A stretch of 64,000 bases of DNA from Micrococcaceae bacterium Sec5.7 (lineage in GTDB: Bacteria > Actinomycetota > Actinomycetes > Actinomycetales > Micrococcaceae). The translations under genes were made by a program, and so were the position numbers. Of this stretch, positions 29,521 through 42,610 are shown piece after piece; position 1 is the first letter of the stretch; each line of letters opens with the position of its first letter. The notes under the pieces are model-generated. The model had not been told where the DNA came from. It did no database searches and saw only the letters and a list, made by a program, of their open reading frames with translations. The stretch is from NCBI GenBank assembly GCA_039636785.1, contig CP144169.1, positions 744,001 to 808,000 of the forward strand. Direction: 5' to 3'.

Positions 29521-29629
29521 GCGGCCTCCAGTTCCGTCGCGTTACGGCCTCCAGTCTAGGCATAGGATGATCCAGTGTCCGTAGACTCATCGACCTCCCG
29601 TGCCGCTGGCTGGGCCGCTCACGCCCGTA

Positions 29630-29879
29630 CACAACGCCGTTAAACGTCCTGCCGCGGTGTTCGAGGCCCCGGACGAAATGGCGATCGGCACTATCCTTGC
29701 AGCACGGGACTTCGGGCAGCGAGTTCCGTACGATCTTTCAGGCATCGGGATGGACGGCCACGAGCTGGGTGAGGTCTGGGCCTGACCACCAGCAGTCAGG
29801 ACGCCCGGGGCTAGGGTGCGCAGGCAGTCCGGCTCTTGCTGGAAGGACTCGAGGGCGGCCGGTTCTGCGGCAGTCCGGG
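29630..29879 (+). pseudogene. lacI-family regulator remnant, left part
   Basis: The frame RPAAVFEAPDEMAIGTILA, then GQRVPYDLSGIGMDGHELGE, is the effector-binding core of a LacI regulator, up to a stop at 29783. One base out of frame the homology continues with LTTSSQDARG, a stop, then GAQAVRLLLEGLEGG. There is no helix-turn-helix or N-terminal half. The sequence breaks at TCCGGG (29874-29879), where the IS21-type end begins. The missing C-terminal codons are found at 42540-42610. The gene was already frameshifted or has decayed since insertion. Confidence 0.85.
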
Positions 29880-29933
29880 TGGTTATGGCAGTTTGAGTGG
29901 GTACCACTCTGGCAGTCTGACTTGAGCCCACCT
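29880..29933 (+). repeat. Left inverted end of the composite element
   Basis: The end begins with TG and contains GGTACCAC, then CTGACTTGAGCCCACC. A related internal copy, TTTCAGTTGAGCCCACC, lies at about 29961-29977. Multiple transposase-binding repeats are usual at IS21 ends. It pairs with 42486-42539. Confidence 0.85.
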
Positions 29934-30024
29934 CGCGACTCGCCGGAGCATTAATCGCAGTTTCAGTTGAGCCCACCCCACCGTTGATTCCGTCAGAGTG
30001 TTTTTCCGATGGTGGAAGGCAGTG

Positions 30025-31698
30025 ATGGAGTTGAGGGTGGATGTTTTTGCTCAGATCCGGCGGGACGCACGAATGGATGGCTTGTCCATTCGGCGATTGG
30101 CGAAGAAGTATCGTGTTGCGCGGCGAACGGTTCGTCAGGCGCTGGCATCGGCGGAGCCGCCGAGCCGAAAGATCCCGGTCCGGGTCGCCCCTAAGTTGGA
30201 TCAGTTCAAGCCTGCCATTGACGAGATGCTGAAGCAGGATCTGGTTGCGCCGCGGAAGCAGCGGCATACCGCTCAGCGGATCTTTGACCGCCTCATCGAT
30301 GAACACCGGGCAGAGGTTTCGTATTCGACGGTGCGCCAGTATGTGAAGGCCCGCCGGGTCCGGATCGAGTATGAGGCCGGCAAAACATCTCTGGAGGTGT
30401 TCATTCCTCAGGAACACGCCCCGGGTGCTGAGGCTGAAGTCGATTTTGGTGAAGTGTGGGTTGATCTGGCCGGGGTCCGCACGAAGTGTTACATGTTCGC
30501 GTTCCGGCTCTCCTTCTCCGGAAAGGCTGTCCATCGGGTCTACCCGACGCAGGGCCAGGAAGCGTTTCTGGAGGGTCACCTTGACGCCTTCGCGACCATT
30601 GGCGGCATCCCCACCGGGCATATCCGCTACGACAATCTCACGGCCGCGGTGAAGACTGTCCTGGGAACCGGTCGCGGAAGGGTGGAGAACGACAGGTGGG
30701 TGCTTTTTCGTTCGCATTGCGGCTTTGACCCGTTTTATTGCCAGCCGGGTCTGGCTGGGGCTCATGAGAAGGGCGGGGTTGAAGGAGAGGTCGGCAGGTT
30801 CCGCCGCAACCACCTTTCCCCGGTGCCGGCGGTCGCGTCGCTGGCTGAGTTGAATGAGCAGATCATGGTCTGGGACGAGGCTGATGACCGGCGCCGGATC
30901 AGCGGGAAACTCCGGCCGGTAGCCGATGACTACGCTGCCGAGCGGCCACTGCTCAATCCCTTGCCTGCCGAGGCCTTTGACCCCGGGCTGGTGCTGACTC
31001 CCAGGGTTGACCGGTCATCGCTGATCCGGGTTCGGATGGTGAAGTACTCAGTGCCGGTCCGGTTCATTGGCCACAGGGTCCGGGTTTCCTTGAAAGCCTC
31101 CGAAGTCGTTGTCTTCGACGGCCGTGCCGTGATCGCCAAACACCCGCGGATGACGGGCCGTGAGGGCAGCCAGGTGAACCTCGATCATTACCTTGAAGTC
31201 CTCAAACGCAAGCCCGGCGCGTTGCCGGGGTCCACCGCACTGGCGCAGGCCCGGGCAGCCGGGGTGTTCACGCCCGCTCATGACGCGTTCTGGGCCGCGG
31301 CCAGGCGGACCGACGGTGATTCGGAGGCCACGCGTCAGCTGGTCGATGTCCTGCTGCTCCACCGGTCCATGGATGCTGCGGATGTGATCGCCGGCATCAC
31401 CGCGGCCCTGGAGGTCGGCGCCGTCACGGCTGACGTGGTCGCTGTTGAAGCCCGCCTGGCCGCCTCTGAACGGGGTGGTGCGGGGTGGGTCCGGCCCGAT
31501 TGCGGTTCCGGTGCAACAACGGATCTGCGTGAGCACAGGATTGTCAGTCTCACCCAGCGCCGTCTGGCGGATCCGGCAGCCGTCATAGCCGGCCTGCCGC
31601 CGGATAACCGGCCCCTGCCCTCGGTGGCCGGCTATGACGAGCTCCTTACCCGCAGAACCACGCCACCAGTCCCGACCGTGCAGGAGAACATCTCATGA
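30025..31698 (+). CDS. istA: IS21-family transposase IstA
   Basis: The 557-residue protein has an N-terminal helix-turn-helix (LSIRRLAKKYRVARRTVRQA, about 15-35) and an rve integrase core with DDE residues in AEVDFGEVWVDL, RYDNLTAAVK and EKGGVEGEVGRFRR, then a beta-rich C-terminal Mu-type region (MVKYSVPVRFIGHRVRV). It cuts and joins the element's ends. The ATG at 30025 follows GGAAGG. The stop overlaps istB by four bases, as usual in this family. It appears complete. Confidence 0.95.
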   Translation: MELRVDVFAQIRRDARMDGLSIRRLAKKYRVARRTVRQALASAEPPSRKIPVRVAPKLDQFKPAIDEMLKQDLVAPRKQRHTAQRIFDRLIDEHRAEVSYSTVRQYVKARRVRIEYEAGKTSLEVFIPQEHAPGAEAEVDFGEVWVDLAGVRTKCYMFAFRLSFSGKAVHRVYPTQGQEAFLEGHLDAFATIGGIPTGHIRYDNLTAAVKTVLGTGRGRVENDRWVLFRSHCGFDPFYCQPGLAGAHEKGGVEGEVGRFRRNHLSPVPAVASLAELNEQIMVWDEADDRRRISGKLRPVADDYAAERPLLNPLPAEAFDPGLVLTPRVDRSSLIRVRMVKYSVPVRFIGHRVRVSLKASEVVVFDGRAVIAKHPRMTGREGSQVNLDHYLEVLKRKPGALPGSTALAQARAAGVFTPAHDAFWAAARRTDGDSEATRQLVDVLLLHRSMDAADVIAGITAALEVGAVTADVVAVEARLAASERGGAGWVRPDCGSGATTDLREHRIVSLTQRRLADPAAVIAGLPPDNRPLPSVAGYDELLTRRTTPPVPTVQENIS

Positions 31699-32504
31699 GC
31701 CCGACCAACCCCGTTGTTGTCTCCACCACCCTGCGCCGCCGCCGCGGGCTGACGGAGGAGGCCGCGACCGCGGCCGTGGATCATGCCTGCCGGCGCCTCC
31801 GATTGCCGACGATCCGGGCGGTCCTTACCGAGGCACTGACGGTGGCGGGAAAGGAGCAACTCTCCTATCAGGGATTCCTGGCGGAGCTGTTGTTGGCCGA
31901 GTGTGATGACCGGGACCGGCGCAGCTCCGTCCGCCGGGTGAAGTCCGCGAACTTTCCGCGCGATAAATGGTTGGGCGACTTCGACTACGACGCGAACCAG
32001 AACATCAACCAGGCGACGGTCAATACCCTGGCCACCGGGGACTGGATCCGCAAAGGCCATCCACTGTGTCTGATCGGGGACTCCGGGACAGGCAAATCCC
32101 ACCTCCTCATCGGCCTGGGCACCGCGGCGGCGGAGAAAGGGTTCCGGGTCAAGTACATCCTCGCCACCCGGCTGGTGAACGAACTGGTCGAGGCAGAGGA
32201 TGAGAAAGTCCTGGCGAAAACCATCGCCCGGTACGGGCGGGTGGATTTGCTCTGCATCGACGAACTTGGCTACATGGAACTGGACAAGCGCGGCGCCGAA
32301 CTGCTGTTCCAGGTCCTGACAGAACGTGAAGAGAAAGCGTCTGTGGCGATCGCGACAAACGAATCCTTCTCCCGGTGGACGAAAACCTTCACCGACCCGC
32401 GGCTCTGCGCGGCGATCGTTGACCGCCTGACGTTCAAAGGAACCATCATCGAGACCGGCACCGACTCCTACCGCCTCGCGCAAACCAAAAACCAACAGCA
32501 CTAG
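31695..32504 (+). CDS. istB: IS21-family helper ATPase IstB
   Basis: The 269-residue AAA+ ATPase has Walker A LIGDSGTGKSHLL (near residue 115) and Walker B VDLLCIDELGYM. It helps IstA to capture target DNA. The N-terminal 100 residues are divergent, but the IstB core is complete and ends QTKNQQH. A closely related but not identical C-terminus (QTKKQQN) recurs at 42443-42478, evidence for a second, mostly lost copy of this element type. Confidence 0.95.
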   Translation: MSPTNPVVVSTTLRRRRGLTEEAATAAVDHACRRLRLPTIRAVLTEALTVAGKEQLSYQGFLAELLLAECDDRDRRSSVRRVKSANFPRDKWLGDFDYDANQNINQATVNTLATGDWIRKGHPLCLIGDSGTGKSHLLIGLGTAAAEKGFRVKYILATRLVNELVEAEDEKVLAKTIARYGRVDLLCIDELGYMELDKRGAELLFQVLTEREEKASVAIATNESFSRWTKTFTDPRLCAAIVDRLTFKGTIIETGTDSYRLAQTKNQQH

Positions 32505-32974
32505 CTGTATTGTCCCGGTAGGAGATACCCAGCGTTGCCGCACCGGTACCCGCAGAATCAAGGCAGTAAGCGTGGGGACCGGACTCGCGTTCCCACACGT
32601 CACTCAGGCGATCCAGATCACCCGACGGACCCGGAAGCTGAACGGTTGCGACCTGGGAAAGCTTCGCCCTCATGGAAGAGCTCGGCGGCTCCACATCTGA
32701 TTGGCATTCTCATCCCTGCCGGAGGCTGCCGGGTCGGGTCGCGAGGTGAGAACTCTACAGTTCGCGTTACCGGTGGACGTTGGCCGACAGCACGGCCCCG
32801 GTGGTTAACCTACGGTCCATGGTCGGAGAGGCCAGATGGACAATCTTTTTCGACGGCTCAAGACCTTGGTAACGGGAGTCTTCAGCTGACCCCTCCAAGC
32901 CCATTAGGTAACGGGGGCAGGCGCAGGTTCCCGGCGGTGATCCGGCCATGAAAAAATCAAGCAAGCTGCCTTTG

Positions 32975-33139
32975 TTACTTGTTCTTCTTCCTGGACATGA
33001 TCGCTGCAAAGACACCGGCGAGTCCGGAAGCGGTGATCACGATTCCTATGACCCGACCTGTGGTGTCGGTTGCTGCCATGACGGACATGACTCCGGCCAC
33101 GGCCAGAAGCGACATGGCGACAATATATAGACGGTTCAT
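32975..33139 (-). CDS. Small two-helix membrane protein (54 aa), Rhs-associated
   Basis: A short frame, ATG at 33139 with GGAGGGG five bases upstream, encodes 54 residues: helix one about 4-22 (LYIVAMSLLAVAGVMSVMA), a short loop with DTTGR, helix two about 30-47, and the basic tail SRKKNK. It is the fourth tiny gene downstream of the orphan Rhs copy on the same strand. I do not recognise a family. It is a candidate immunity protein or a leftover from an earlier Rhs cassette. Good ribosome site and membrane pattern support it; its size keeps confidence moderate. Confidence 0.6.
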   Translation of the reverse strand: MNRLYIVAMSLLAVAGVMSVMAATDTTGRVIGIVITASGLAGVFAAIMSRKKNK

Positions 33140-33157
33140 TAACCCCTCCAGGGCCCG

Positions 33158-33277
33158 CTAACAATTGTGTATGATTCCTGCTCCGCCGCCAGCAGCTCCG
33201 GTAAGGGCTGAAAAGAGACCGAATGCTGCCCAGCCTCCGACCACACCCCACACGTTGGGAAAATCCCAGAATTTCAC
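33158..33277 (-). CDS. Putative 39-aa hydrophobic peptide
   Basis: A GTG at 33277 with GGAGG four bases upstream opens a 39-residue frame: MKFWDFPNVWGVVGGW, a Gly/Ala-rich hydrophobic stretch and the end AGIIHNC. It could form one membrane helix. It lies 18 bases before the next small gene. It may be a genuine peptide or the last codons of a lost toxin tail. No family is recognised. Confidence 0.4.
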   Translation of the reverse strand: MKFWDFPNVWGVVGGWAAFGLFSALTGAAGGGAGIIHNC

Positions 33278-33323
33278 TGGACCTCCGTTGTCAGCCGATT
33301 CACGAGATTACGGCACCCCGGAG

Positions 33324-33506
33324 CTAGTCTTGGGCGCTGGGGCTTCTGTACATGCGCCTTCCCCAGCCGAACGCCGCGTAGGCAGCCCCCAGGACTGACG
33401 CCGAACCCAGCCATTCTGAACGCCCGTCAAAGAGGCAAAGGATCGCCGACATGACCAGAAGGACCGTCGCCGCTATGTAAATCTTTTTGCGACCAGATTG
33501 TTCCAT
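33324..33506 (-). CDS. Small two-helix membrane protein (60 aa), Rhs-associated
   Basis: The ATG at 33506 has AAGGGG seven bases upstream and gives 60 residues beginning MEQSGRKKIYI, with helices at about 9-25 and 33-47 and a basic end. The frame is open to a TTG at 33608, which would add a third hydrophobic segment (94 residues) but has no ribosome site. It follows the 64-residue membrane gene on the same strand, in the small-gene run behind the orphan Rhs tail. The function is unknown; an immunity role is possible. Confidence 0.6.
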   Translation of the reverse strand: MEQSGRKKIYIAATVLLVMSAILCLFDGRSEWLGSASVLGAAYAAFGWGRRMYRSPSAQD

Positions 33507-33627
33507 TTTTCTGCCCCTTACAGACCGCCGTAGTAGGCGTTGGTTCAGGATTGTCCCGACAATAACCAGGAGCAGCAAGACCTCCGGCCAAGGACGTGGT
33601 TCTGTCAATCCGCGGCAGGATCAGTCC

Positions 33628-33822
33628 TCAACTAGGAGTGGTTGTGAGAGCACCGAACAATGCGTAGAGGAACAGTCCGACGGAGAGCAGTACGAGCAAC
33701 AGGACGACGGTTCGCCCGGGGAATGGCTTCCCTTTCGCTAAACGCTTCGATCGGACGTACAGGAAACAACCGCCTAGAACGAGTAGGGCCGCGAAGAGCG
33801 GTATCAATGGCCAGTAGCGCAC
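33628..33822 (-). CDS. Candidate immunity protein of the orphan Rhs tail (64 aa, two helices)
   Basis: The GTG at 33822 has AAGGAGG seven bases upstream, and that ribosome site is formed by the stop region of the Rhs frame, 12 bases away. The protein has helix one WPLIPLFAALLVLGGCFLYV, a basic loop KRLAKGKPFPGR and helix two TVVLLLVLLSVGLFLYALFG. Rhs immunity genes lie directly downstream of the toxin tail, and the toxin tail here is itself hydrophobic, so a membrane immunity protein would make sense. There is no sequence family match; the role rests on position and spacing. Confidence 0.72.
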   Translation of the reverse strand: MRYWPLIPLFAALLVLGGCFLYVRSKRLAKGKPFPGRTVVLLLVLLSVGLFLYALFGALTTTPS

Positions 33823-33834
33823 ATAATCACCTCC

Positions 33835-34733
33835 TTACTGACATGCCACGAACGCTGCACCAGCGGTCAGGGCGCCGAACGCTGCCGCCACTCCGGACAG
33901 AACTCCGAGGCTCAATCCTGCCGGGAGGCCGATCACCGAGGAGTCCACAAAGAGAGAGAACCCAAACAGACCTGCGGCGAATACTCCGATGCCCGCTGCA
34001 GCTGCGGTAAGTCCAGAACATGCGCTGAGTCCGGTGGGATCTGTGAAATTGCAGGGGCTGGCCCCTGCATAGAGATACCTGTTTCCCTCTTGCCCGGAGG
34101 GGTCGGGTTGGGTGAAGCGGCCGTTGCCGGGGGCGTAGTAGCGTGCACCGAACTTCGTGAGTCCGGTGGGGTCGTCTTTGTAGCCGCCGGCGTAGCGCCA
34201 TGGGTTGGCCGCGGCCTGTGTCCCGGTCTGGGTGGTGTTGCCCCAGGAGTCGTAGGTGTAGGTGGCTGCTTTGGCCTGGGTGCTGTCGGTGAGGGCGATG
34301 ACGGAGCCGAGCGCGTCGGTGGTGTAGTAGAAGCTGGCCCCGGCACTGTTGCGCATGCTGATGAGCGTACCCGCCGGGTCGCGGATGAACGAGGTGCTTG
34401 CGCCGGCGGTCGTCTGCTGGGTGATGCCGAGGGAGCCGTTGAGGTAGCTGGTGGCTCCGGCCGCGGTGCGCTCGGTGTTGGAGGGTCCGGCGTAGGCGAA
34501 GCTAGTCGTCGATCCCGCGGTGTGTGAGGCCAGCTGGTCGAAGGTGTTCCAGGTGCTGGTGGGTGTGCCGCCCCTGGTGGTGTTGCCGTTCGCGTCATAA
34601 GTGTAGGTCGAGGCACCGACCGGTGGCGCGGCGCAGGCCGCAGCGGCGGTACCCATCCAGCAGAGCTGGTCGGCGGCGTTGTAGGCCCAATGGAAAGTTG
34701 TGGCCCCTGTCTTGGCTGAGGTGAGACCGTTTG
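33835..34733 (-). pseudogene. Orphan Rhs core fragment with alternative C-terminal tail
   Basis: It has no start of its own. From about 34733 the frame reads as an Rhs/YD-repeat C-terminal core (YTYDANGN, YTYDSWGNTTQTGTQ, then GARYYAPGNGRFTQPDPSG) nearly identical to the main Rhs gene at 38.9-39.5 kb. After YLYAGASPCNFTDPTG it carries a different 64-residue tail, almost wholly hydrophobic (LTAAAAGIGVFAAGLFGF, later VLSGVAAAFGALTAGAAF), ending in FVACQ. This is the structure of displaced Rhs-CT orphon cassettes, able to recombine into the main gene. Upstream, homology stops at unrelated sequence. Confidence 0.85.
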
Positions 34734-34850
34734 CCGCGCTGGGCCCAGGGCATCGCCGAATCCGGGACGCCGTCGGTAATTACCAACCCCACAGCGTTTC
34801 TGGTGGACTTCCTGCCTGTCATTCGCCGCAAGCTGGGGCGCACCGGTCCA
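34731..34850 (+). pseudogene. Unrecognised coding remnant next to the Rhs orphan
   Basis: A plus-strand frame of about 40 codons reads LPRWAQGIAESGTPSV, then FLVDFLPVIRRKLGRTGPV, with the third-position GC of a real gene. It starts where Rhs homology ends and is cut by the second IS at 34858. I do not recognise the family. The RNase H-like frame beyond that IS is in another register, so the two may not be one gene. Confidence 0.35.
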
Positions 34851-34971
34851 GTCAGATTGAGTATTTGAAGCTTTGAGCGCCACCTGTTCGTGCGGTTCAG
34901 CGCCGGGGTTCGTGCGAGAGAGCGCCAGCGGTCGCGGGGCCTGGCGCCGCTGACGCTCTCCGTGACGGTTG

Positions 34972-35721
34972 CTAGGCGGTTGCGAGTGCTGTGTGCTCGC
35001 GCATGTTGTAATTGCCTGTCTCGACCCAGATCGTGTTGTGGATGATCCGGTCCATGATCGCGTCGGCGTGAACGCCGGAGCCGAGCCGCTGGTGCCAGTC
35101 CTTCTGCGAGTACTGGGTGCAGAACACTGTTGACGTCTCCCCGTAGCGGCGTTCCATCAGTTCCAGCAGCATGGTGCGCATCGATTCCGTGGGCCGATCC
35201 AGCAGCCACTCATCAATGACCAGCAGGGTGAATGCCGCATATTTGCGCAGGAACTTGCCGGATCCGCCAGGGGTGTCTTGGGCGGCGACCCAGGCTTCCT
35301 CGAGGTCGGGCATGCGGACGTAATGCGCGCGGATGCGGTGTTCGCATGCGCGTTTAGCGATCGCGCATCCCAGGTAGGACTTCCCCGACCCGGTGAACCC
35401 TTGGAAGACAACGTTCTGCTGCCGGGCCACGAACGAGCAGGTGCCGAGCTGGCTCAGCAGCGGCCGGTCAAGACCTCGCTCGTCGAGGAGGTCGATGCGG
35501 CGCAGGTCAGCGTTCGGGTAGCGCAGCCCCGCCCGCCGGATCAGGCCGGTGACTTTGGCATGGGTGAACGACGCGTAGGCGTCATCGACGACCAGCCGGA
35601 GACGATCTTCGAACGGCAGGCTGATGCTCAGCGTCTCGTCTTGGGTATCTATGGCCTCCAGCAGCTCGCCCGCGTTCATCTCCCGCAGCTTGCGTTTGGT
35701 TTCCGTGTCCAGGCGGCTCAT
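34972..35721 (-). CDS. istB: IS21-family helper ATPase IstB (element B)
   Basis: The 249-residue AAA+ ATPase has Walker A QGFTGSGKSYLGCA near residue 110 and Walker B TLLVIDEWLL near residue 165. Its start overlaps istA by four bases. It is the target-selection partner of the transposase. It appears full length, with no frameshift. Confidence 0.95.
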   Translation of the reverse strand: MSRLDTETKRKLREMNAGELLEAIDTQDETLSISLPFEDRLRLVVDDAYASFTHAKVTGLIRRAGLRYPNADLRRIDLLDERGLDRPLLSQLGTCSFVARQQNVVFQGFTGSGKSYLGCAIAKRACEHRIRAHYVRMPDLEEAWVAAQDTPGGSGKFLRKYAAFTLLVIDEWLLDRPTESMRTMLLELMERRYGETSTVFCTQYSQKDWHQRLGSGVHADAIMDRIIHNTIWVETGNYNMREHTALATA

Positions 35722-37271
35722 CGGGTCCCTCCTGCGTAGTAGGAGCTGCCGCGCACGTATCCGCCATCTTGGTCATCAGGCTCCTCGACGTGCCCGGTTT
35801 TGTCCTGCCCGGTGTCCAGGATCGGCCGCAGGTGGGCGTAACGGGGCGATCGTATCGGACCGCGCAGCGCGAGCTGGCATGCGGCTTCCACCCGGGCTGG
35901 TGAGAACCTACGAGACAGACGCAGCACCGCCAGGGCCGGGTCGTAGCCGGCTTCCTCGATGCGGACAGACTCGAAGATCTTCTCGATCACGGTCCCGGTC
36001 GCCGGTCCCATCCGTAACGCCCAGGCGTCGATCCGGGCCCGGTCCCAGGCTTGCCAGCTGTGCCCCTCGGGAAGGTCGGCTTCGTTCGTCCGATACTGGT
36101 TCGTCGTCGTCACGGGCAGCAGCAGGTGGCTGGTCAGGCGCTCATCACCCCGATAGATCTCGAGCACGGTGTCCGTGACGCGAAGATCAACATGCGCGCC
36201 GATGTGGGTGAACGGGACGGAGTAGAAGTTTTTTGACCAGACCACGTGTCCGTTCCGGCTTACTTTGCGCCCATATGTCCAGGTGCTGATCTCGAAAGTC
36301 ACCGCCGGCAACGGTTGCAGCAGCGGCTTCTCCTCGGCCGTGAACACGCTCAGCCGGGAGCCCTCCCGCTTCTGGAACGGCTGTCGGTTGTAGGCATCGA
36401 TCTGCTCCCGAATCCGGGCCCGCAGCTGCACCAGGCTGGTGAACTGCTCCTGCCTCAGACCCGCAATCACCCAGGTGGCGACGTGGGAGACAGTGTTTTC
36501 TACGCTGGCTTTGTCTTTCGGGTGCCGCACCCGGCCCGGTAGTACCGCCGCCGAATAATGCGCCGCCATCTCCCGATAGGCGTCGTTGAGGACGACTTCG
36601 CCCTCGCGCGGGTGAGAGATCACCCCGGTCTTGAGGTTGTCGGGGACGAGCCTCGGGACCGTGCCGCCGAAGAATGCGAACATCGCCGCATGCGCGCGCA
36701 GCCACGACTCCTGCCGCATATCCAACGTCGCCTCCACGAACGCATACCGGCTGAACGGCAGGCACGCGACGAACAAATACACCTTCGAGACCTCTCCCGT
36801 TGCCGGGTCAACGAGCTGCATCGTCGGCCCGGACCAGTCGACCTCGACGCCGCGGCCGGCCTTATGGCCGACCCGAGACGACGCGCCAGTGACGTTGGCG
36901 TAATCGCCGTAAAGCCTGCAGAACCGGTCATAACTCATCGCCGCTTGCCCGGCCCGACCGCACCCGTCGAGATACTCCTGGTGCAGCAGCTTCAACGTCA
37001 CCCCAACCCTGGCCAGCTCGCGGTGCACCTGGACCCAGTCCGGCTGCGCGAACACGCTCTCCCGCACCCCGCGACCGGGAAACAGCGCCAGATACACCTC
37101 GCCCTCAGACTTCTCCGCAACGTCGTCCCAACCGAGCCCGAGCTGATCCGCAGCATCGATCACCGCCTGAACGCTGTGCCTGGACATGCCCTGAGCAAGC
37201 GAGATCGCTCTGCCGGACAGGCCCTGGTTACGCAACTGCAAGACGAGCTTCGCCTTGATCTTCCGTACCAT
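35718..37271 (-). CDS. istA: IS21-family transposase IstA (element B)
   Basis: The protein has 517 residues from the ATG at 37271, which follows GGAAGGAG; an in-frame GTG seven codons earlier overlaps that site. It has a helix-turn-helix start (LSGRAISLAQGMSRHSVQAV), DDE core residues in GVEVDWSGPTMQL, VPDNLKTGV and KDKASVENTVSH, and a C-terminal region with WSKNFYSVPFTHIG. The length fits IstA. Intact genes, ends and target duplication suggest it could still be mobile. Confidence 0.95.
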   Translation of the reverse strand: MVRKIKAKLVLQLRNQGLSGRAISLAQGMSRHSVQAVIDAADQLGLGWDDVAEKSEGEVYLALFPGRGVRESVFAQPDWVQVHRELARVGVTLKLLHQEYLDGCGRAGQAAMSYDRFCRLYGDYANVTGASSRVGHKAGRGVEVDWSGPTMQLVDPATGEVSKVYLFVACLPFSRYAFVEATLDMRQESWLRAHAAMFAFFGGTVPRLVPDNLKTGVISHPREGEVVLNDAYREMAAHYSAAVLPGRVRHPKDKASVENTVSHVATWVIAGLRQEQFTSLVQLRARIREQIDAYNRQPFQKREGSRLSVFTAEEKPLLQPLPAVTFEISTWTYGRKVSRNGHVVWSKNFYSVPFTHIGAHVDLRVTDTVLEIYRGDERLTSHLLLPVTTTNQYRTNEADLPEGHSWQAWDRARIDAWALRMGPATGTVIEKIFESVRIEEAGYDPALAVLRLSRRFSPARVEAACQLALRGPIRSPRYAHLRPILDTGQDKTGHVEEPDDQDGGYVRGSSYYAGGTR

Positions 37272-37430
37272 TACCGGTACTCCTTCCACCACGTGGCCCT
37301 CACGCGGTGGAAGGAGCTTTTCAGGTGGCGCTCAACCACACCAACACTGGCGCTGACCAGCGCAAATCGTGGGCTCGGACCCCGGCGCTAACCCGCACCA
37401 CACATGGACCCCTCAAGAGCGAATATTCAG

Positions 37431-37712
37431 TCAGATTCCTGCGCGGCTCTGCGCCTGCTGCGTACCGTCGGAGCCTGCCGCCAGCCTGCCGCGTGCACGA
37501 CCAATCAGATCAAGCTCGCCCGAAGGATCCTCGAAGAATCCGGCCACATCCCGGTCCAGTTCCGCTGGGTGAAGGGCCACCAGGGCAACGAGATGAACGA
37601 AGCCGCGGACCGGCTCGCCGTCCTGGCCCGCCACAACCGGGAATTCGGCGTCACAAACGAGGTCGGCAAGAGGATGTTCCGGGACCTCCGCGACCAGCTC
37701 GTCGCCGCCTGA
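37431..37712 (+). pseudogene. C-terminal fragment of an RNase H-like protein
   Basis: A 93-codon frame runs from the IS boundary: SDSCAALRLLRTV, TTNQIKLARRILEESG, then the RNase H end VQFRWVKGHQGNEMNEAADR and a closing FRDLRDQLVAA. SDS and GHQGN fit the third and fourth active-site regions of RNase H1-type enzymes. The N-terminal half is absent: element B lies directly upstream, and the flank on its other side is not in register. It is a truncated remnant, origin unknown. Confidence 0.7.
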
Positions 37713-37727
37713 CCTGAATAACCTGTG

Positions 37728-37795
37728 GTGCCATTCGCGTCGTGGGGTAGGCCGTTGCACCCGCCGGCTGCGCAGAGCAGGCTGCCGCAGGAGAC
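37728..37795 (-). pseudogene. Third, eroded Rhs core relic
   Basis: On the minus strand AACSAQPAGATAY, a frameshift and DANGTTG align with CASPPVGASTYTYDANGNQT of the Rhs core (main gene about 39400-39470). The DNA shares TGCCATTCGCGTC and neighbouring positions at roughly 60-65 percent. It marks an older Rhs cassette between the orphan and the main gene. It is short, so confidence is moderate. Confidence 0.5.
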
Positions 37796-37880
37796 ATGAA
37801 GAATGTCAACCTTTAGCTGCTTGCGTTCGGGAAAGTAGCAATCAACCAGGATCCTAAATGCTAGTCAACCCGTCGCCGTC

Positions 37881-38078
37881 CTAGCGTCTACGCTTCCAGG
37901 ATCGAAACTTGGCGAGTTCGGCGCCAATCAGCACTAGAGCCAACACGAGAAACAAAAGCCCTAGCAACCAGTCCCCGTCGCCAAAGGAGAGGGCTGCCAT
38001 TATGACGAAGTACAGCGCTAGCCCGAGGGCCGCGACGGCAATCCACATTCGGTGACTTTCGTTTGGAATGACACTCAT
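37881..38078 (-). CDS. Small two-helix membrane protein (65 aa), Rhs-associated
   Basis: From the ATG at 38078 the 65-residue protein has helices at about 11-31 (MWIAVAALGLALYFVIMAAL) and 36-55 and a strongly basic tail (KFRSWKRRR). An in-frame TTG six codons earlier is possible. It is the third small membrane gene downstream of the main Rhs gene. No family is recognised. It could be an immunity protein for the present or an earlier toxin tail. Confidence 0.6.
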   Translation of the reverse strand: MSVIPNESHRMWIAVAALGLALYFVIMAALSFGDGDWLLGLLFLVLALVLIGAELAKFRSWKRRR

Positions 38079-38145
38079 CAACGGCCTGCCTTCCAATTAT
38101 TAGCCCTCACGCGGGTGAGGTCCCGACTACATACGGCTCCAACCG

Positions 38146-38370
38146 TCATGAATGCGCAACCAACGCATATATCAGTGTTAATGCTCCGGCCAGCACAAAC
38201 ACGGCCCCCACCGCTCTGATGAATCTTGGCCTCATGCGAACGTACGGAGCCATCCGAGGACTCATCCTCTTGTCCCACTTTTGTTGAAGCGAAGCCAACC
38301 GACGCGGCTGCCAAACTGCAATCAGACCTATCAAGGCGACCGCCAGGCCGGTCCAAACTAGATTCCCCAT
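38146..38370 (-). CDS. Small two-helix membrane protein (74 aa), Rhs-associated
   Basis: The ATG at 38370 follows GAGAGGG. Helices lie at about 3-20 (NLVWTGLAVALIGLIAVW) and 51-71, separated by a long basic loop (KWDKRMSPRMAPYVRMRPR). It is second in the run of small genes behind the main Rhs tail, 38 bases after the 34-residue gene. Function is unknown. The arrangement mirrors the one behind the orphan Rhs tail. Confidence 0.65.
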   Translation of the reverse strand: MGNLVWTGLAVALIGLIAVWQPRRLASLQQKWDKRMSPRMAPYVRMRPRFIRAVGAVFVLAGALTLIYALVAHS

Positions 38371-38408
38371 GTCACCCTCTCCGTGTCGCTGTGCTCAGGC
38401 CGTGCAGT

Positions 38409-38513
38409 TCATTTTCTTCCCTTGAAAAAGAAGAAGTAGGCCATGATGAGAATCAGAACGAAGAAGACCGCCGTCAGAACATTGACCCATGTTGTATCAC
38501 CTAACCACTGCAT
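38409..38513 (-). CDS. Small one-helix membrane peptide (34 aa) directly after the Rhs gene
   Basis: The ATG at 38513 with GAGG about nine bases upstream opens 34 codons: MQWLGDTTWVNVL, a hydrophobic segment with FFVLILIMAYFFFF, and a KGRK end. It starts 27 bases after the Rhs stop, the place where an immunity gene is expected. Its size resembles small membrane peptides that inhibit partners or sit in toxin-antitoxin systems. No family is recognised. Confidence 0.55.
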   Translation of the reverse strand: MQWLGDTTWVNVLTAVFFVLILIMAYFFFFKGRK

Positions 38514-38540
38514 GATTCTGTTCCTCGCCTCATGAGCCGG

Positions 38541-41500
38541 CTAGCCCAGTCTTGTGATGGCCGATATTCCATAGGTGCAGGGAGCACCAAGTGTGGCCGA
38601 GATCCCGAATGCTGAAGATGATGCCGATGTGCGGAAGAAAAGGGGGCCGATTGGACAGGTCAGAGCGAGGCTCGACGTACTTTCGGAAATATTGGTGTTT
38701 GAAACTGATGCCGATAAATTGGCACCAGCACCGCCGAATCCGAAGCCCGAAGTGAATCCGTAAACACCATTATCATCTTGGGACAGACCGAAATTTACGC
38801 AGAAAAACAAGCACACGCCAATTGTCTCATTCCCGGTCAGTCGTCCGCTCGGATCGGTATTGTTGACAGGGTTCGGGCCTGCGTAGAGGTACCGGTTTGC
38901 TTCCTGCCCGGAGGGGTCGGGTTGGGTGAAGCGGCCGTTGCCGGGGGCGTAGTAGCGTGCACCGAACTTCGTGAGTCCGGTGGGGTCGTCTTTGTAGCCG
39001 CCGGCGTACCGCCAGGGGTTGGCCGCGGCCTGTGTCCCGGTCTGGGTGGTGTTGCCCCAGGAGTCGTAGGTGTAGGTGGCTGCTTTGGTCTGGGTGCTGT
39101 CGGTGAGGGCGATGACGGAGCCGAGCGCGTCGGTGGTGTAGTAGAAGCTGGCCCCGGCACTGTTGCGCATGCTGATGAGCGTACCCGCCGGGTCGCGGAT
39201 GAACGAGGTGCTTGCGCCGGCGGTCGTCTGCTGGGTGATGCCGAGGGAGCCGTTGAGGTAGCTGGTGGCTCCGGCCGCGGTGCGCTCGGTGTTGGAGGGT
39301 CCGGCGTAGGCGAAGCTGGTCGTCGATCCCGCGGTGTGTGAGGCCAGCTGGTCGAAGGTGTTCCAGGTGCTGGTGGGTGTGCCGCCCTTGGTTTGGTTGC
39401 CATTCGCGTCATAGGTGTAGGTCGAGGCTCCGACCGGTGGTGAGGCGCAGGCGGCGGCTGCGGCTCCGTTCCAGCACAGCTGGTCGGCGGCGTTGTAGGC
39501 CGAATGGACGGTCGTCCCACCGGTCTTGGCTGAGGTGAGGCGGTTGCCGTTGAGGTCATAGGTCCAGGATTCGGTCACGGTGCCGGTGACGGCGGACTTC
39601 AGCCGCTGCACGGCATCGTAGCCATACGTGGTGACTGCGCCTGTGTCGGTGGTCATGGTCTTCCGCAACGCCCCGTCCCTGAGCGTGGTCGCATTGGTCG
39701 TGTAGGTGTAGGCGCGCTTGGCCAGGACGGCTGCCGCGGTGTTCGTCGCCGTGATGGAGGTGATCCTGCCGGCCTTGTCGTAGACCGTGGTGTTCTTCAC
39801 CCCGGTGGGGTACATGGTTGCGGTCCGGCGATTGTTGTCGTCGTTGGTGAAACCGGTGCAACCTGTGCTGTTCGGGAACACCGGGACGGCCGGGCAGGAC
39901 CCGCCCGGTTCTGCCAGGGCGGTCACCCGGTCCGCGTCGTCGTAGCGGTATCCGACCGTCCCGGTCGGATCGGTGAAGCTGGTGAGGTTGGACGCGTGGT
40001 CATACGCCAGGGATGTGGTGACTCCCCCGGTGGTCTTCGAGGCCGGGCGGTTCTGCTGGTCGTAGACGACACTGGTGGTCCCGGACCCGTCGACCCGGGT
40101 GGTGAGGTTGCCGTTGGCGTCGTAGGTGTAGGTCACGCAGCTCGCCGGGACGCAGCTCGCGCCGAAGCGCATCTGCAGCAAACGGTCGTTTCCGTCGTAG
40201 GCGTAGGTGGCGGTCTGGCCCTTGCCGTCCTTGCTGGTCGCGACCCGTCCGGCGGCGTCGAACGTTTTCGTGATGACCCCCAGCGGTGCCGGGCGGGTGA
40301 CCGTGACAGGATTCCGCGCGGCGTCGTAGGTGAGGGAGGTGGTGTTGCCCTTGCCGTCGATGGTCTTGCAGAGCTGGCCGCGGAGCGCCCCGCAGGTCGT
40401 GGCCGCCGCGTCGCCCTGGTATCTGGTGATGCGGGTGCCTCCGCCTGCCGCACCTCCCGGCGTGATGGTCTGGTACGGGCGCTTGGTGGCGGTGTCGTAG
40501 GTGTAGGCGGTGAGGTTTCCTTCGCTGTCCGTGGAGGAGACGGGCTGGAACTCCAGCCACGCCTCCCCGGCGGTGGCTGCCGGGTAGGTGTAGGCGATCT
40601 GCTTCGGTGTGCCTCCGGTCGCGCCGGCCGGGGAGGTGATGTTCGCCAGGGTGTTGTTCGGGTTGTACGCCGAGGTGCTCAGGTTGCCCAGATCATCGAG
40701 GTGGGTCAGCTGGTTGTCGTGCGCGTCGAAGGTCTTCGTGACCTTGTTCCCGAGCGGGTCGGTGACGGAGGTGATCTGGCGGGACGCGTTGAACTTGAAC
40801 GTCGTCACGCGGTTGTCGGTGTCCGTCAGGGTCGCGGTGGTGGCGTCCACGGAGGACAGGGTGTGGATGGTGGGGTCATTGCCGGCGGCGTCGTAGATGA
40901 TCTGGGCGGCCTTGCCGTTCACGTCGTAGCTCGTCTCGGTCCTGGCGCCCCGGCCGTCCGTCAGCCTGTGCAGCAGCCCGGAGGAGTAGTTGAAGCTGAC
41001 GTGCGCGCCGGCGGCGTCGGTCAGGTCCTGCAGGCGCCCGTCGCTGTCGTAATCGATGGTGATCATCCGGTTCAGGGTCTGGTCGGTGATTTTGGAGGGC
41101 TGGCCGGTGTTGTCCGCGTCGTTGTATTCGAAGAGGACCGTCCGGCCGTTGACGGTGGTGATGGTCTCCAGCCGGCCGTCGGTGTCGTAGGCGTAGGCGA
41201 TCCGGTCCGCGGTGTTGCTGTACTGGTCCCCGGCGAACGCGAGCCGGAACACCCCGTTGACCTTTTCGTAGAAGTTGGTGTTCCCCGAGCCGTTGAAGCG
41301 CAGCGTCACCGCCGTGGTGCTGAACGCGGTGATGGTCGCGTTCAGGCCGGCCGGCATGGTCCAGCCGCCCCCGGTCTTGGGCACGAACTTATACGTCCCG
41401 CCGTCGGCCGCCGTGTACGTGACGGAGTTGTCCGCGCCCACCGCCACCGCCGTCTCGGAAGTGCCCTCCGAGAGGGTGGGCCGGTCGTCGTTGATGCTGT

Positions 41501-41882
41501 TGTACCGAAGGGACAGGTCGATGTCCCGGTCCGTGCCTTCGAGATGAAGGAGCTTACCGGTGACCAGGATGTTGCCGGTGGTCGGGTTCCAGGCGAGGTT
41601 CATGCTGTCCGTCAGGCTGCGGTTGACCATTCCGGCCGGGGACAGGGAACCGGACAGGTGTCCGTTCGGTCCGGCCGCCGGCGGCAGGGTGTCATTGAGC
41701 GGGATGCTCTGCGCCACCGCCAGGTTCATCGGCGCCGAGACGGCCGGCGCAAGCGTCGTGGGCGCCACGCTCCGCGGCGGCACCACGGCGGGCGTTGAAG
41801 CGGTTCCTGCCGGGGCGCTCAGGCCCGTCAGAACAACCGCGGAAAGGACAAGACCTGACACAAGAGACCGTAAAGCAGCCAT
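38541..41882 (-). CDS. Secreted Rhs/YD-repeat protein with unrecognised C-terminal tail
   Basis: The protein has 1113 residues from the ATG at 41882 (GGGGG six bases upstream; an ATG at 41933 in frame is possible). A signal peptide (SLVSGLVLSAVVLTGLSAPA) is followed by a Pro/Ala linker, many YD repeats (YDADGRL, YDSDGRLQDLTD, YTYDANGNLTT and others, about 240-900), and the Rhs core ending GRFTQPDPSG and NPVNNTDPSG. The last 100 residues change character: Gly/Ser-rich, with four cysteines, more AT-rich DNA and no known toxin motif. Rhs shells enclose and release such tails. It is presumably exported and possibly wall-associated. Confidence 0.88.
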   Translation of the reverse strand: MAALRSLVSGLVLSAVVLTGLSAPAGTASTPAVVPPRSVAPTTLAPAVSAPMNLAVAQSIPLNDTLPPAAGPNGHLSGSLSPAGMVNRSLTDSMNLAWNPTTGNILVTGKLLHLEGTDRDIDLSLRYNSINDDRPTLSEGTSETAVAVGADNSVTYTAADGGTYKFVPKTGGGWTMPAGLNATITAFSTTAVTLRFNGSGNTNFYEKVNGVFRLAFAGDQYSNTADRIAYAYDTDGRLETITTVNGRTVLFEYNDADNTGQPSKITDQTLNRMITIDYDSDGRLQDLTDAAGAHVSFNYSSGLLHRLTDGRGARTETSYDVNGKAAQIIYDAAGNDPTIHTLSSVDATTATLTDTDNRVTTFKFNASRQITSVTDPLGNKVTKTFDAHDNQLTHLDDLGNLSTSAYNPNNTLANITSPAGATGGTPKQIAYTYPAATAGEAWLEFQPVSSTDSEGNLTAYTYDTATKRPYQTITPGGAAGGGTRITRYQGDAAATTCGALRGQLCKTIDGKGNTTSLTYDAARNPVTVTRPAPLGVITKTFDAAGRVATSKDGKGQTATYAYDGNDRLLQMRFGASCVPASCVTYTYDANGNLTTRVDGSGTTSVVYDQQNRPASKTTGGVTTSLAYDHASNLTSFTDPTGTVGYRYDDADRVTALAEPGGSCPAVPVFPNSTGCTGFTNDDNNRRTATMYPTGVKNTTVYDKAGRITSITATNTAAAVLAKRAYTYTTNATTLRDGALRKTMTTDTGAVTTYGYDAVQRLKSAVTGTVTESWTYDLNGNRLTSAKTGGTTVHSAYNAADQLCWNGAAAAACASPPVGASTYTYDANGNQTKGGTPTSTWNTFDQLASHTAGSTTSFAYAGPSNTERTAAGATSYLNGSLGITQQTTAGASTSFIRDPAGTLISMRNSAGASFYYTTDALGSVIALTDSTQTKAATYTYDSWGNTTQTGTQAAANPWRYAGGYKDDPTGLTKFGARYYAPGNGRFTQPDPSGQEANRYLYAGPNPVNNTDPSGRLTGNETIGVCLFFCVNFGLSQDDNGVYGFTSGFGFGGAGANLSASVSNTNISESTSSLALTCPIGPLFFRTSASSSAFGISATLGAPCTYGISAITRLG

Positions 41883-42307
41883 GCTGCGCCCCCAATATGA
41901 TGTGCTCCCCAGCGAGCCGCTTCGCGCCCCCATGAGCACAGGATGATCATCAGTGATTGCCGCCGCACATTGCAATACATGTGGATGCATTTTCTCCAGA
42001 CCATGGCGTAACCCTTGGGCGGCCCCGAGTTACCACTCCATGGTCGTGTGACATCCGCAACGATCCCCGCTGCCACCCGCCGAGTCTCGACGGGATAAAT
42101 CCAGGAATCGGCAGGAATCCGCGCCTTTGAGCTGGACTGGAGGCATCTCTGTCGTCGAGTCGACACGTGATCCACGTTGCGGATGGCCTTGCTGGGTGCC
42201 CGCCCGGGCGTCCTGTGACAGCAGGATTACAGGCCCGTCAGAATCTTGACTCTTTTTGCAAACTCCGGACTTATCGGACGCGGCTGGCCAGTCGGAGCTT
42301 CAGCGAA
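41883..42307 (-). other. Upstream region of the Rhs gene, no gene recognised
   Basis: The stretch is 425 bases between the Rhs start and an SDR fragment. It should contain the Rhs promoter, but I could not name convincing -35 and -10 boxes. Open frames on both strands are short and unlike known families. Confidence 0.5.
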
Positions 42308-42442
42308 TCAGGAACCAGGGCCCGGGACGCGGGCGAGGAACTTGTACCGCTTGGACGGAATGGACACCGATTTGCCGGCCAGCGCGTCCGCGAGTCCTTC
42401 ACGGACGACCTGATCGGCTGAAGCCACATCCAGTCCTTGACC
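42308..42442 (-). pseudogene. 3' end of a short-chain dehydrogenase gene
   Basis: On the minus strand the frame DVASADQVVREGLADALAGK, then SVSIPSKRYKFLARVPGPGS and a stop at 42308 matches the C-terminal end of SDR oxidoreductases, where a helix precedes a conserved P-x-x-RYK segment. The rest of the gene is missing: istB relic sequence begins at about 42443. It is cargo captured or truncated during element rearrangement. Confidence 0.6.
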
Positions 42443-42539
42443 CGCCGTCTCGCACAAACCAAGAAACAGCAAAACTAGCACCACAAGGTGGGCTCAAGTC
42501 AGGCTGCCAAAGTGGTACCAATTCAGATTGACATTCTCA
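42443..42539 (+). mobile_element. Right-end relic of an IS21-type element (istB C-terminus plus inverted end)
   Basis: ACCCGCCGTCTCGCACAAAC and the following bases encode RRLAQTKKQQN and a stop, almost the C-terminus of istB in element A. After 42478 comes the inverted end with GGTGGGCTCAAGTCAG, GTGGTACC and a CATTCTCA terminus at 42539. It is the counterpart of the 29880 end and abuts the TCCGGG duplication. The remainder of this copy is lost. Confidence 0.85.
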
Positions 42540-42610
42540 TCCGGGAGTATCCCACGGAGTTTGTGGTCCGCACGAGCACGGCTGTGCCCCTGGTGCCCCT
42601 GTTCCGCTGA
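42540..42610 (+). pseudogene. lacI-family regulator remnant, C-terminal codons
   Basis: The frame REYPTEFVVRTSTAVPLVPLFR and a stop at 42608-42610 is a classic LacI C-terminus (LPTELVVRxST pattern). With the 12.66-kb segment and one TCCGGG removed, it joins the remnant at 29630-29879. It is the key evidence for the boundaries of the composite insertion. Confidence 0.85.

What the first reader, a model, noticed from the sequence alone, without database searches (positions are those of the whole stretch)
29874..42545. A lacI gene is split by a 12.66-kb IS21-bounded island carrying an Rhs locus
LacI core sequence stops at TCCGGG (29874-29879) and the LacI C-terminus (REYPTEFVVRTST) resumes after TCCGGG at 42540-42545. 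The ends are inverted repeats agreeing at about 44 of 54 positions. IS21 elements normally move alone; a composite carrying Rhs genes, small membrane genes and another IS would be an unusual vehicle for polymorphic toxin cassettes.
Basis: partly seen in the sequence, partly recalled or inferred. Interest (0 to 1): 0.85.

Follow-up and report, generated by a model that had tools for sequence, protein, structure and literature searches.

The report
IS21 transposon carrying Rhs toxin genes
A jumping gene of the IS21 kind has picked up an array of Rhs (predicted bacterial toxin) genes and appears to move it as one 12.7-kb unit; it belongs to a wider group of IS21 transposons in soil actinobacteria that carry other useful genes such as mercury resistance.

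Summary
Element 29880-42539 is bounded by TSD TCCGGG, has inverted ends agreeing at 44 of 54 positions, and sits in a decayed lacI relic. At least 33 of 150 genus genomes align unbroken across the insertion point. It is not a two-copy composite: one istA-istB pair lies at the left end, cargo follows istB, and the right end is a ~99-bp IS21 relic. The inner IS is a distant IS21 with its own TSD. IS21 elements of this subfamily often carry cargo: I measured 50 different elements with 0.1-12.2 kb between istB and the right end, holding merA, mscL, a tRNA synthetase, sugar-uptake or metal-efflux genes. Rhs recurs beside such ends in 8 loci of 6 genomes, 4 with both ends and a TSD. A second locus in the window's own genome has the same two arms (L009), and another Rhs element splits a urocanase gene (L115). 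I read it as an IS21 cargo transposon for Rhs toxin-immunity arrays. Present activity, toxicity, immunity and assembly order are inferred.

The parts
29874..29879 (.). left copy of the 6-bp target-site duplication TCCGGG
   Evidence: second copy 42540-42545
29600..29873 (+). lacI relic, left part (target site, not part of the element)
29880..29994 (+). left end (IRL) with internal repeats
29998..31698 (+). istA, IS21 transposase, 566 aa
   Evidence: NF033546 239.8 bits against cut-off 160
31695..32504 (+). istB, helper ATPase, 269 aa, overlaps istA by 4 bp
   Evidence: NF038214 252.8 bits against cut-off 200
32695..32712 (+). probable relic of an inner right end
   Evidence: 15 of 18 match to the true right end; only the true end scores higher on either strand of the 64-kb window
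32975..33822 (-). small hydrophobic ORFs (64, 84 or 94, 39 and 54 aa) after the orphan Rhs tip; possible immunity proteins
   Evidence: no family match for those tested
33835..34656 (-). orphan rhs 3' end, 273 aa, with its own C-terminal tip
   Evidence: TIGR03696 77.5 bits against cut-off 32.5; 92% DNA repeat of the full rhs
34858..37429 (-). second, distant IS21 inserted in the cargo, 2572 bp, TSD GTCAGAT; istA 35718-37292, istB 34972-35721
37404..37712 (+). RNase HI-like fragment beside the inner IS21
   Evidence: below NCBIfam cut-off
37881..38513 (-). small hydrophobic ORFs (34, 74 and 65 aa) after the full rhs; possible immunity proteins
   Evidence: the 74- and 65-aa ones have no family match
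38541..41990 (-). full rhs gene, 1149 aa, with a signal-like N-terminus (by eye)
   Evidence: Pfam RHS_repeat, TIGR03696, TIGR01643
42333..42436 (-). fragment of a conserved chromosomal gene, not identified
   Evidence: matched in many genus genomes; no Pfam match for its 33-aa reading
42441..42539 (-). right end: short istB tail relic plus terminal repeat (IRR)
   Evidence: 82% over 99 bp to L044; profile match
42540..42545 (.). right copy of the target-site duplication TCCGGG

Best explanation
A 12.66-kb IS21-family cargo transposon. One IstA/IstB pair at the left end is inferred to pair the left end with a distant right end, so that the DNA between (a full rhs gene, an orphan Rhs tip and small membrane genes) moves together and makes a 6-bp duplication. 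It was probably built when a second IS21 copy beyond an Rhs locus lost all but its right end; the left copy's own right end decayed, and a distant IS21 jumped into the cargo at some point. Shown: ends, TSD, unbroken sites in other species, a second site with the same arms, and a family of like-built elements. Inferred: order of assembly, present IstAB activity, and that the Rhs tips are antibacterial toxins with membrane immunity proteins.
For: Ends 44 of 54 and TSD; intact-length istA and istB above cut-off; right end = istB tail + IRR; L009 with 1188 bp of the left arm (98%) and 861 + 130 bp of the right arm (97%, 99%) ending at the exact terminal bases, dissimilar flanks; L115, 7470 bp, TSD CACCAT, splits a urocanase gene whose two halves match the Urocanase domains and read as one 565-aa frame when joined; L086, 9786 bp, TSD GGGAG; L113 shares the L115 right arm at 89% over 705 columns with dissimilar outer flank; in 32 loci with measurable ends, 29 have TSD of 5 or more, displaced-end control 11 of 7249.
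Against: L009 has no TSD and a rearranged middle. TSD and ends alone do not prove that rhs was inside when lacI was hit. No full-length second copy and no strain polymorphic at the site was found. TSD was a selection rule for 38 of the 73 loci, and decided between two right ends in L086 and L100. Several rhs copies beside such ends are truncated or rearranged (L009, L110a, L115).
Confidence: 0.78

Rival explanations
1. Stepwise filling: a simple IS21 inserted in lacI with its TSD, and the Rhs array later entered the resident element by recombination between IS21 copies or on another element; the whole never jumped as one.
For: IS21 relics are plentiful in this genome; L009 has no TSD; a distant IS21 did insert in the cargo later or elsewhere.
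Against: L009 carries both arms, with the rhs start and the istB-tail right end, at another place; L115 with Rhs splits a gene that is otherwise open, with a TSD; L113 has the L115 arm elsewhere.
Confidence: 0.17
2. Classical composite transposon with two working IS21 copies around the cargo.
For: A second IS21 right end with an istB tail closes the island.
Against: The right copy is reduced to about 99 bp; no second left end or second istA/istB of this subfamily lies at the right side.
Confidence: 0.03
3. The Rhs array is a passive, decaying hitchhiker with no toxin-immunity function (this concerns the cargo, not the vehicle).
For: rhs is truncated or rearranged in L009, L110a and L115; the Rhs label is scattered on the IstB tree; the possible immunity ORFs match no family.
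Against: The window and L086 keep a full-length rhs frame with extra rhs 3' pieces, and in the window both tips are followed by small hydrophobic ORFs with ribosome-site-like upstream sequence.
Confidence: 0.3

Closest known systems
IS21 family insertion sequences (IstA + IstB)
   Same: IstA and IstB above NCBIfam cut-offs, overlapping genes, TG...CA ends with internal repeats, 5-7 bp TSD
   Different: 10 kb of cargo between istB and the right end; passages list IS21 elements at 1.7-1.8 kb (PMC7371123) and 2.47-2.50 kb (PMC3281130)
istA-istB-merA-merR element of plasmid pASPHE301 (P. phenanthrenivorans Sphe3, NC_015146.1)
   Same: same gene order, cargo behind istB; a 4884-bp element of this type was measured at 7 different sites
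   Different: mercury cargo of about 2.27 kb; annotated in the record as separate IS and host genes
Transporter IS (tIS): IS with passenger genes
   Same: single transposase module and passenger genes inside one pair of ends; definition seen in passages of PMC9330008
   Different: the passages seen give no IS21 example; here cargo reaches 12.2 kb
Rhs/WapA-type polymorphic toxin loci; plasmid pYA7-1b of Arthrobacter sp. YA7-1 has a like array
   Same: full rhs followed by extra rhs 3' pieces and small ORFs; solved relatives by sequence are Rhs and teneurin-like proteins
   Different: bounded by IS21 ends; tips short and hydrophobic, no matched toxin domain. E. coli Rhs elements with H-rpt are recalled, not compared

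Membership tests
IS21 family transposable element | IstA of the IS21 type | tested here: met
   NF033546, 239.8 bits against cut-off 160
IS21 family transposable element | IstB helper ATPase overlapping istA | tested here: met
   NF038214, 252.8 against 200; 31695 lies before 31698
IS21 family transposable element | inverted ends and short TSD | tested here: met
   44 of 54; TCCGGG
IS21 family transposable element | compact IS of about 2-2.6 kb without passengers (size range partly recalled) | tested here: not met
   12,660 bp
Composite transposon | two IS copies flanking the cargo | tested here: not met
   right side is a ~99-bp relic
Transporter IS | passenger genes between the ends of one IS, moving with it | tested here: inconclusive
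   anatomy met; movement supported by L009, L115, L113 but not observed
Rhs polymorphic toxin locus | YD repeats and Rhs-associated core | tested here: met
   TIGR01643, TIGR03696 above cut-off, Pfam RHS_repeat
Rhs polymorphic toxin locus | exchangeable C-terminal tips with orphan tips | tested here: met
   orphan at 33835-34656 shares the core but not the tip with the full gene
Rhs polymorphic toxin locus | immunity gene after each tip | tested here: inconclusive
   small hydrophobic ORFs present, no family match
Rhs polymorphic toxin locus | toxic activity of the tip | not testable with these tools
   -
RHS element core protein NF041261 | score above the curated cut-off of 2000 | tested here: not met
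   112.4 bits

The most novel reading that the evidence does not exclude
These elements are a poorly recognised class of IS21 cargo transposons that grow by using more distant right ends (nested right ends in L086, L100, L175, L068), and in the Arthrobacter group they repeatedly capture and spread Rhs toxin-immunity arrays among chromosomal sites, as Tn3- or Tn7-like elements do for other cargo.
Probability: 0.45. Interest if true: 0.75.

Novelty: new variant of a known kind. Interest (0 to 1): 0.58.

Why it matters
IS21 elements are usually treated as stand-alone insertion sequences. An actinobacterial branch that carries mercury, metal, sugar-uptake and Rhs genes behind istB would be a neglected gene vehicle, one that annotation splits into 'IS' and 'host genes'. 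It offers a concrete route by which polymorphic toxin arrays reach new chromosomal sites in Gram-positive soil bacteria, and the nested right ends make the path from IS to cargo transposon directly testable.

Tried and rejected
Classical composite with two working IS21 copies: rejected. Rhs and IS21 descending together: not supported; the Rhs label needs 6 gains or losses on the IstB tree of 51 rows, at least 5 forced by well-supported branches, no better than shuffled labels, and the IS21-borne Rhs are not one clade in a tree of 10 rows. These are changes, not counted captures; IstB is short and exchange between IS copies could add changes. A PADLOC match of IstB to DrmD was set aside as a shared AAA fold. 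Finding ends by blastn-short missed several window-like elements; ungapped scoring and an end profile replaced it. L139's first right end was wrong and was corrected before the tally. Of the 40 loci were left out of the tally: L067 and L084 (no left end found), L071 and L105 (no right end found), L078 (no istA upstream), L081, L099, L103 (contig ends at the element ends). Of the 80 loci, 42 were left out because a terminal match and a TSD were not both found. Three measured elements have no TSD: L066, L077, L097. Only the rhs start and right arm were searched across the genus, so Rhs loci without that part were missed. The downstream fragment 42333-42436 was not identified. Literature: IS21 + Rhs + polymorphic toxin 0 papers, IS21 + RHS repeat 0, IstB + mercuric reductase + Arthrobacter 0; the listings showed titles and starts of abstracts only, and passages of three papers were seen. 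The library lacks most subscription journals, and ISfinder could not be consulted, so 'poorly recognised' is weakly founded.
Full report
Observation. TCCGGG flanks an island of 12,660 bp (29880-42539), and its first and last 54 bp match as inverted repeats at 44 of 54. The flanking LacI-like sequence is a relic: joined in a script it shows the C-terminal part of LacI broken by a stop and frame changes and ending in REYPTEFVVRTST; a 51-aa piece matches Peripla_BP_3 just under the Pfam cut-off. Searching the joined flanks in 150 genus genomes gave at least 33 with one alignment across the insertion point, 7 of them running on into the acetyltransferase stretch (my count, printed rows truncated). 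These are other species, and some may be paralogues.

Anatomy. From the left: left end, istA (29998-31698), istB (31695-32504), a probable decayed inner right end (32695-32712, 15 of 18), small hydrophobic ORFs, an orphan rhs 3' end (33835-34656, minus), a distant IS21 of 2572 bp with TSD GTCAGAT (34858-37429), an RNase HI-like fragment, more small hydrophobic ORFs, a full 1149-aa rhs (38541-41990, minus), a fragment of a conserved chromosomal gene, and a right end of about 99 bp made of a short istB tail plus the terminal repeat. The right end is 82% identical over 99 bp to the istB tail and right end of a partial IS in L044. So the element has one transposase module of its own and the relic of a second IS21.

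The same arms elsewhere in the genome. L009 (G000:C1:2145000-2153500) holds 1188 bp of the left arm at 98%, and 861 bp (97%) plus 130 bp (99%) of the right arm including the rhs start, both ending at the exact terminal bases; its middle is lost and partly replaced by another IS21 piece. Its flanks are dissimilar to those of the window and there is no TSD. The assembled arms thus occur at two places, but L009 is not a clean full-length copy.

The family. From 40 loci with close istB relatives in the genus both ends could be measured in 32 (25 different elements); 29 of the 32 have a TSD of 5 bp or more. Ends were chosen by terminal match or end profile, except that the TSD decided between two right ends in L086 and L100. 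A second set of 80 named loci gave 38 by a rule that required both TSD and terminal match. With the window, L115 and L110a this makes 73 loci and 50 different elements, 47 with a TSD of 5 or more, 2.7-14.8 kb long; 13 of the 47 have over 3 kb between istB and the right end. As a control, right ends displaced by 20-218 bp gave a TSD of 5 or more in 11 of 7249 tries. Hosts include Arthrobacter, Pseudarthrobacter, Paenarthrobacter, Sinomonas, Agromyces, Curtobacterium, Microbacterium, Marisediminicola, Mycolicibacterium and Skermania. Cargo tested with Pfam (20 proteins, two without a match) includes a pyridine-nucleotide-disulphide reductase with a MerR regulator (annotated merA in pASPHE301), mscL, a class-II tRNA synthetase with an editing domain, an MFS transporter, a sigma factor, a sugar-binding protein with ABC ATPase and FGGY kinase (L070, 14,757 bp, TSD CGCCGT), and metal-efflux genes with a Tn3 transposase (L069, 14,819 bp, TSD CCATGG). 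One 4884-bp element with the mer cargo was measured at 7 different sites.

Rhs cargo recurs. A search of 206 genus genomes with the rhs start and right arm, plus the istB loci, led to 8 loci in 6 genomes where rhs lies within or beside IS21 ends: the window, L009, L086, L115, L113, L110a, L110b, L071. Four have both ends and a TSD: window TCCGGG, L086 GGGAG, L115 CACCAT, L110a TTTTGGC. The two halves of the gene around L115 match the Urocanase domains and read as one 565-aa frame when joined; removing L086 leaves an open frame that I read as a sugar-ABC ATPase (name by eye). L110a gave no long frame at its site. It has a full rhs, three rhs 3' pieces and two right ends, 566 bp and 7167 bp after istB; the TSD fits only the outer one. 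L113 and L115 share a right arm into rhs (89% over 705 columns) with dissimilar outer flanks; L110a and L110b share theirs at 77% over 692. Of the 15 loci fetched, 9 gave a tblastn match to rhs and 3 (L110, L113, L115) had an IS21 right end beside it; L112, L114, L116 and L123 had none, L111 only IS relics at a distance, L118 only a short rhs piece.

Cargo turnover. On an IstB tree of 51 elements the 6 Rhs-bearing ones need 6 changes of label, at least 5 forced by well-supported branches, no better than shuffled labels. Gains and losses are not told apart. On an Rhs core tree of 10 rows the closest relative of the window's Rhs (L112) has no IS21 in the 19 kb fetched. Cargo therefore turns over fast, or moves between IS21 copies.

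Mechanism. The most likely history: two IS21 copies flanked an Rhs locus; the distal copy eroded to its right end; IstAB paired the left end with that distal end and moved what lay between. Nested right ends in L086, L100, L175 and L068 suggest the same step in other lineages (the inner one of L068 is partial, E 0.0014). For the Rhs part, the anatomy (signal-like N-terminus by eye, YD repeats, core, short tips, small hydrophobic ORFs after each tip) fits a toxin-immunity array. Solved relatives by sequence are Rhs and teneurin-like proteins. Neither toxicity nor immunity was tested.

Comparison. By protein models it is IS21, but the plain-IS size criterion and the composite criterion both fail. 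It works like a transporter IS. Passages seen of a review define such elements (PMC9330008; no IS21 case in the passages seen), and passages of two papers list IS21 at 1.7-2.5 kb (PMC7371123; PMC3281130). No description of IS21 cargo transposons or of IS21-borne Rhs showed up in the listings, within the limits of that library; the 11 papers listed (Rhs, polymorphic toxin, transposon, insertion sequence) were not read.

Noticed in passing
L079, L080, L082, L083, L085, L088, L178: One 4884-bp IS21 element with merA/merR-type cargo sits at 7 different sites with different short TSDs.
   Followed up: partly
L070 (G128:C69): 14,757-bp IS21 element with a sugar ABC transporter, ROK-like regulator and FGGY kinase, TSD CGCCGT.
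   Followed up: partly
L010 (G000:C1:3080000-3089000): Cluster of left and right IS21 ends of this subfamily in the window's own genome, one left end 98% identical to the window's.
   Followed up: no
window 42333-42436: Fragment of a conserved chromosomal gene caught between the rhs upstream region and the right end; partly deleted in L009.
   Followed up: partly
L132 (record titled Vibrio cholerae strain 35D): Contig at 60.6% GC with an IstB 92% identical to the window's; probably a mislabelled or contaminated record.
   Followed up: no
L210 (P. ureafaciens pA): A related rhs on a conjugative plasmid lies beside TniB/Mu-type transposase genes, so another transposon class may carry Rhs too.
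   Followed up: no
L199-L202: IstB relatives (82%) in Microbacterium sp. BR1, M. lacus SDZm4 and Ca. Leucobacter sulfamidivorax; link to sulfonamide-degrading strains is recalled, not tested.
   Followed up: no
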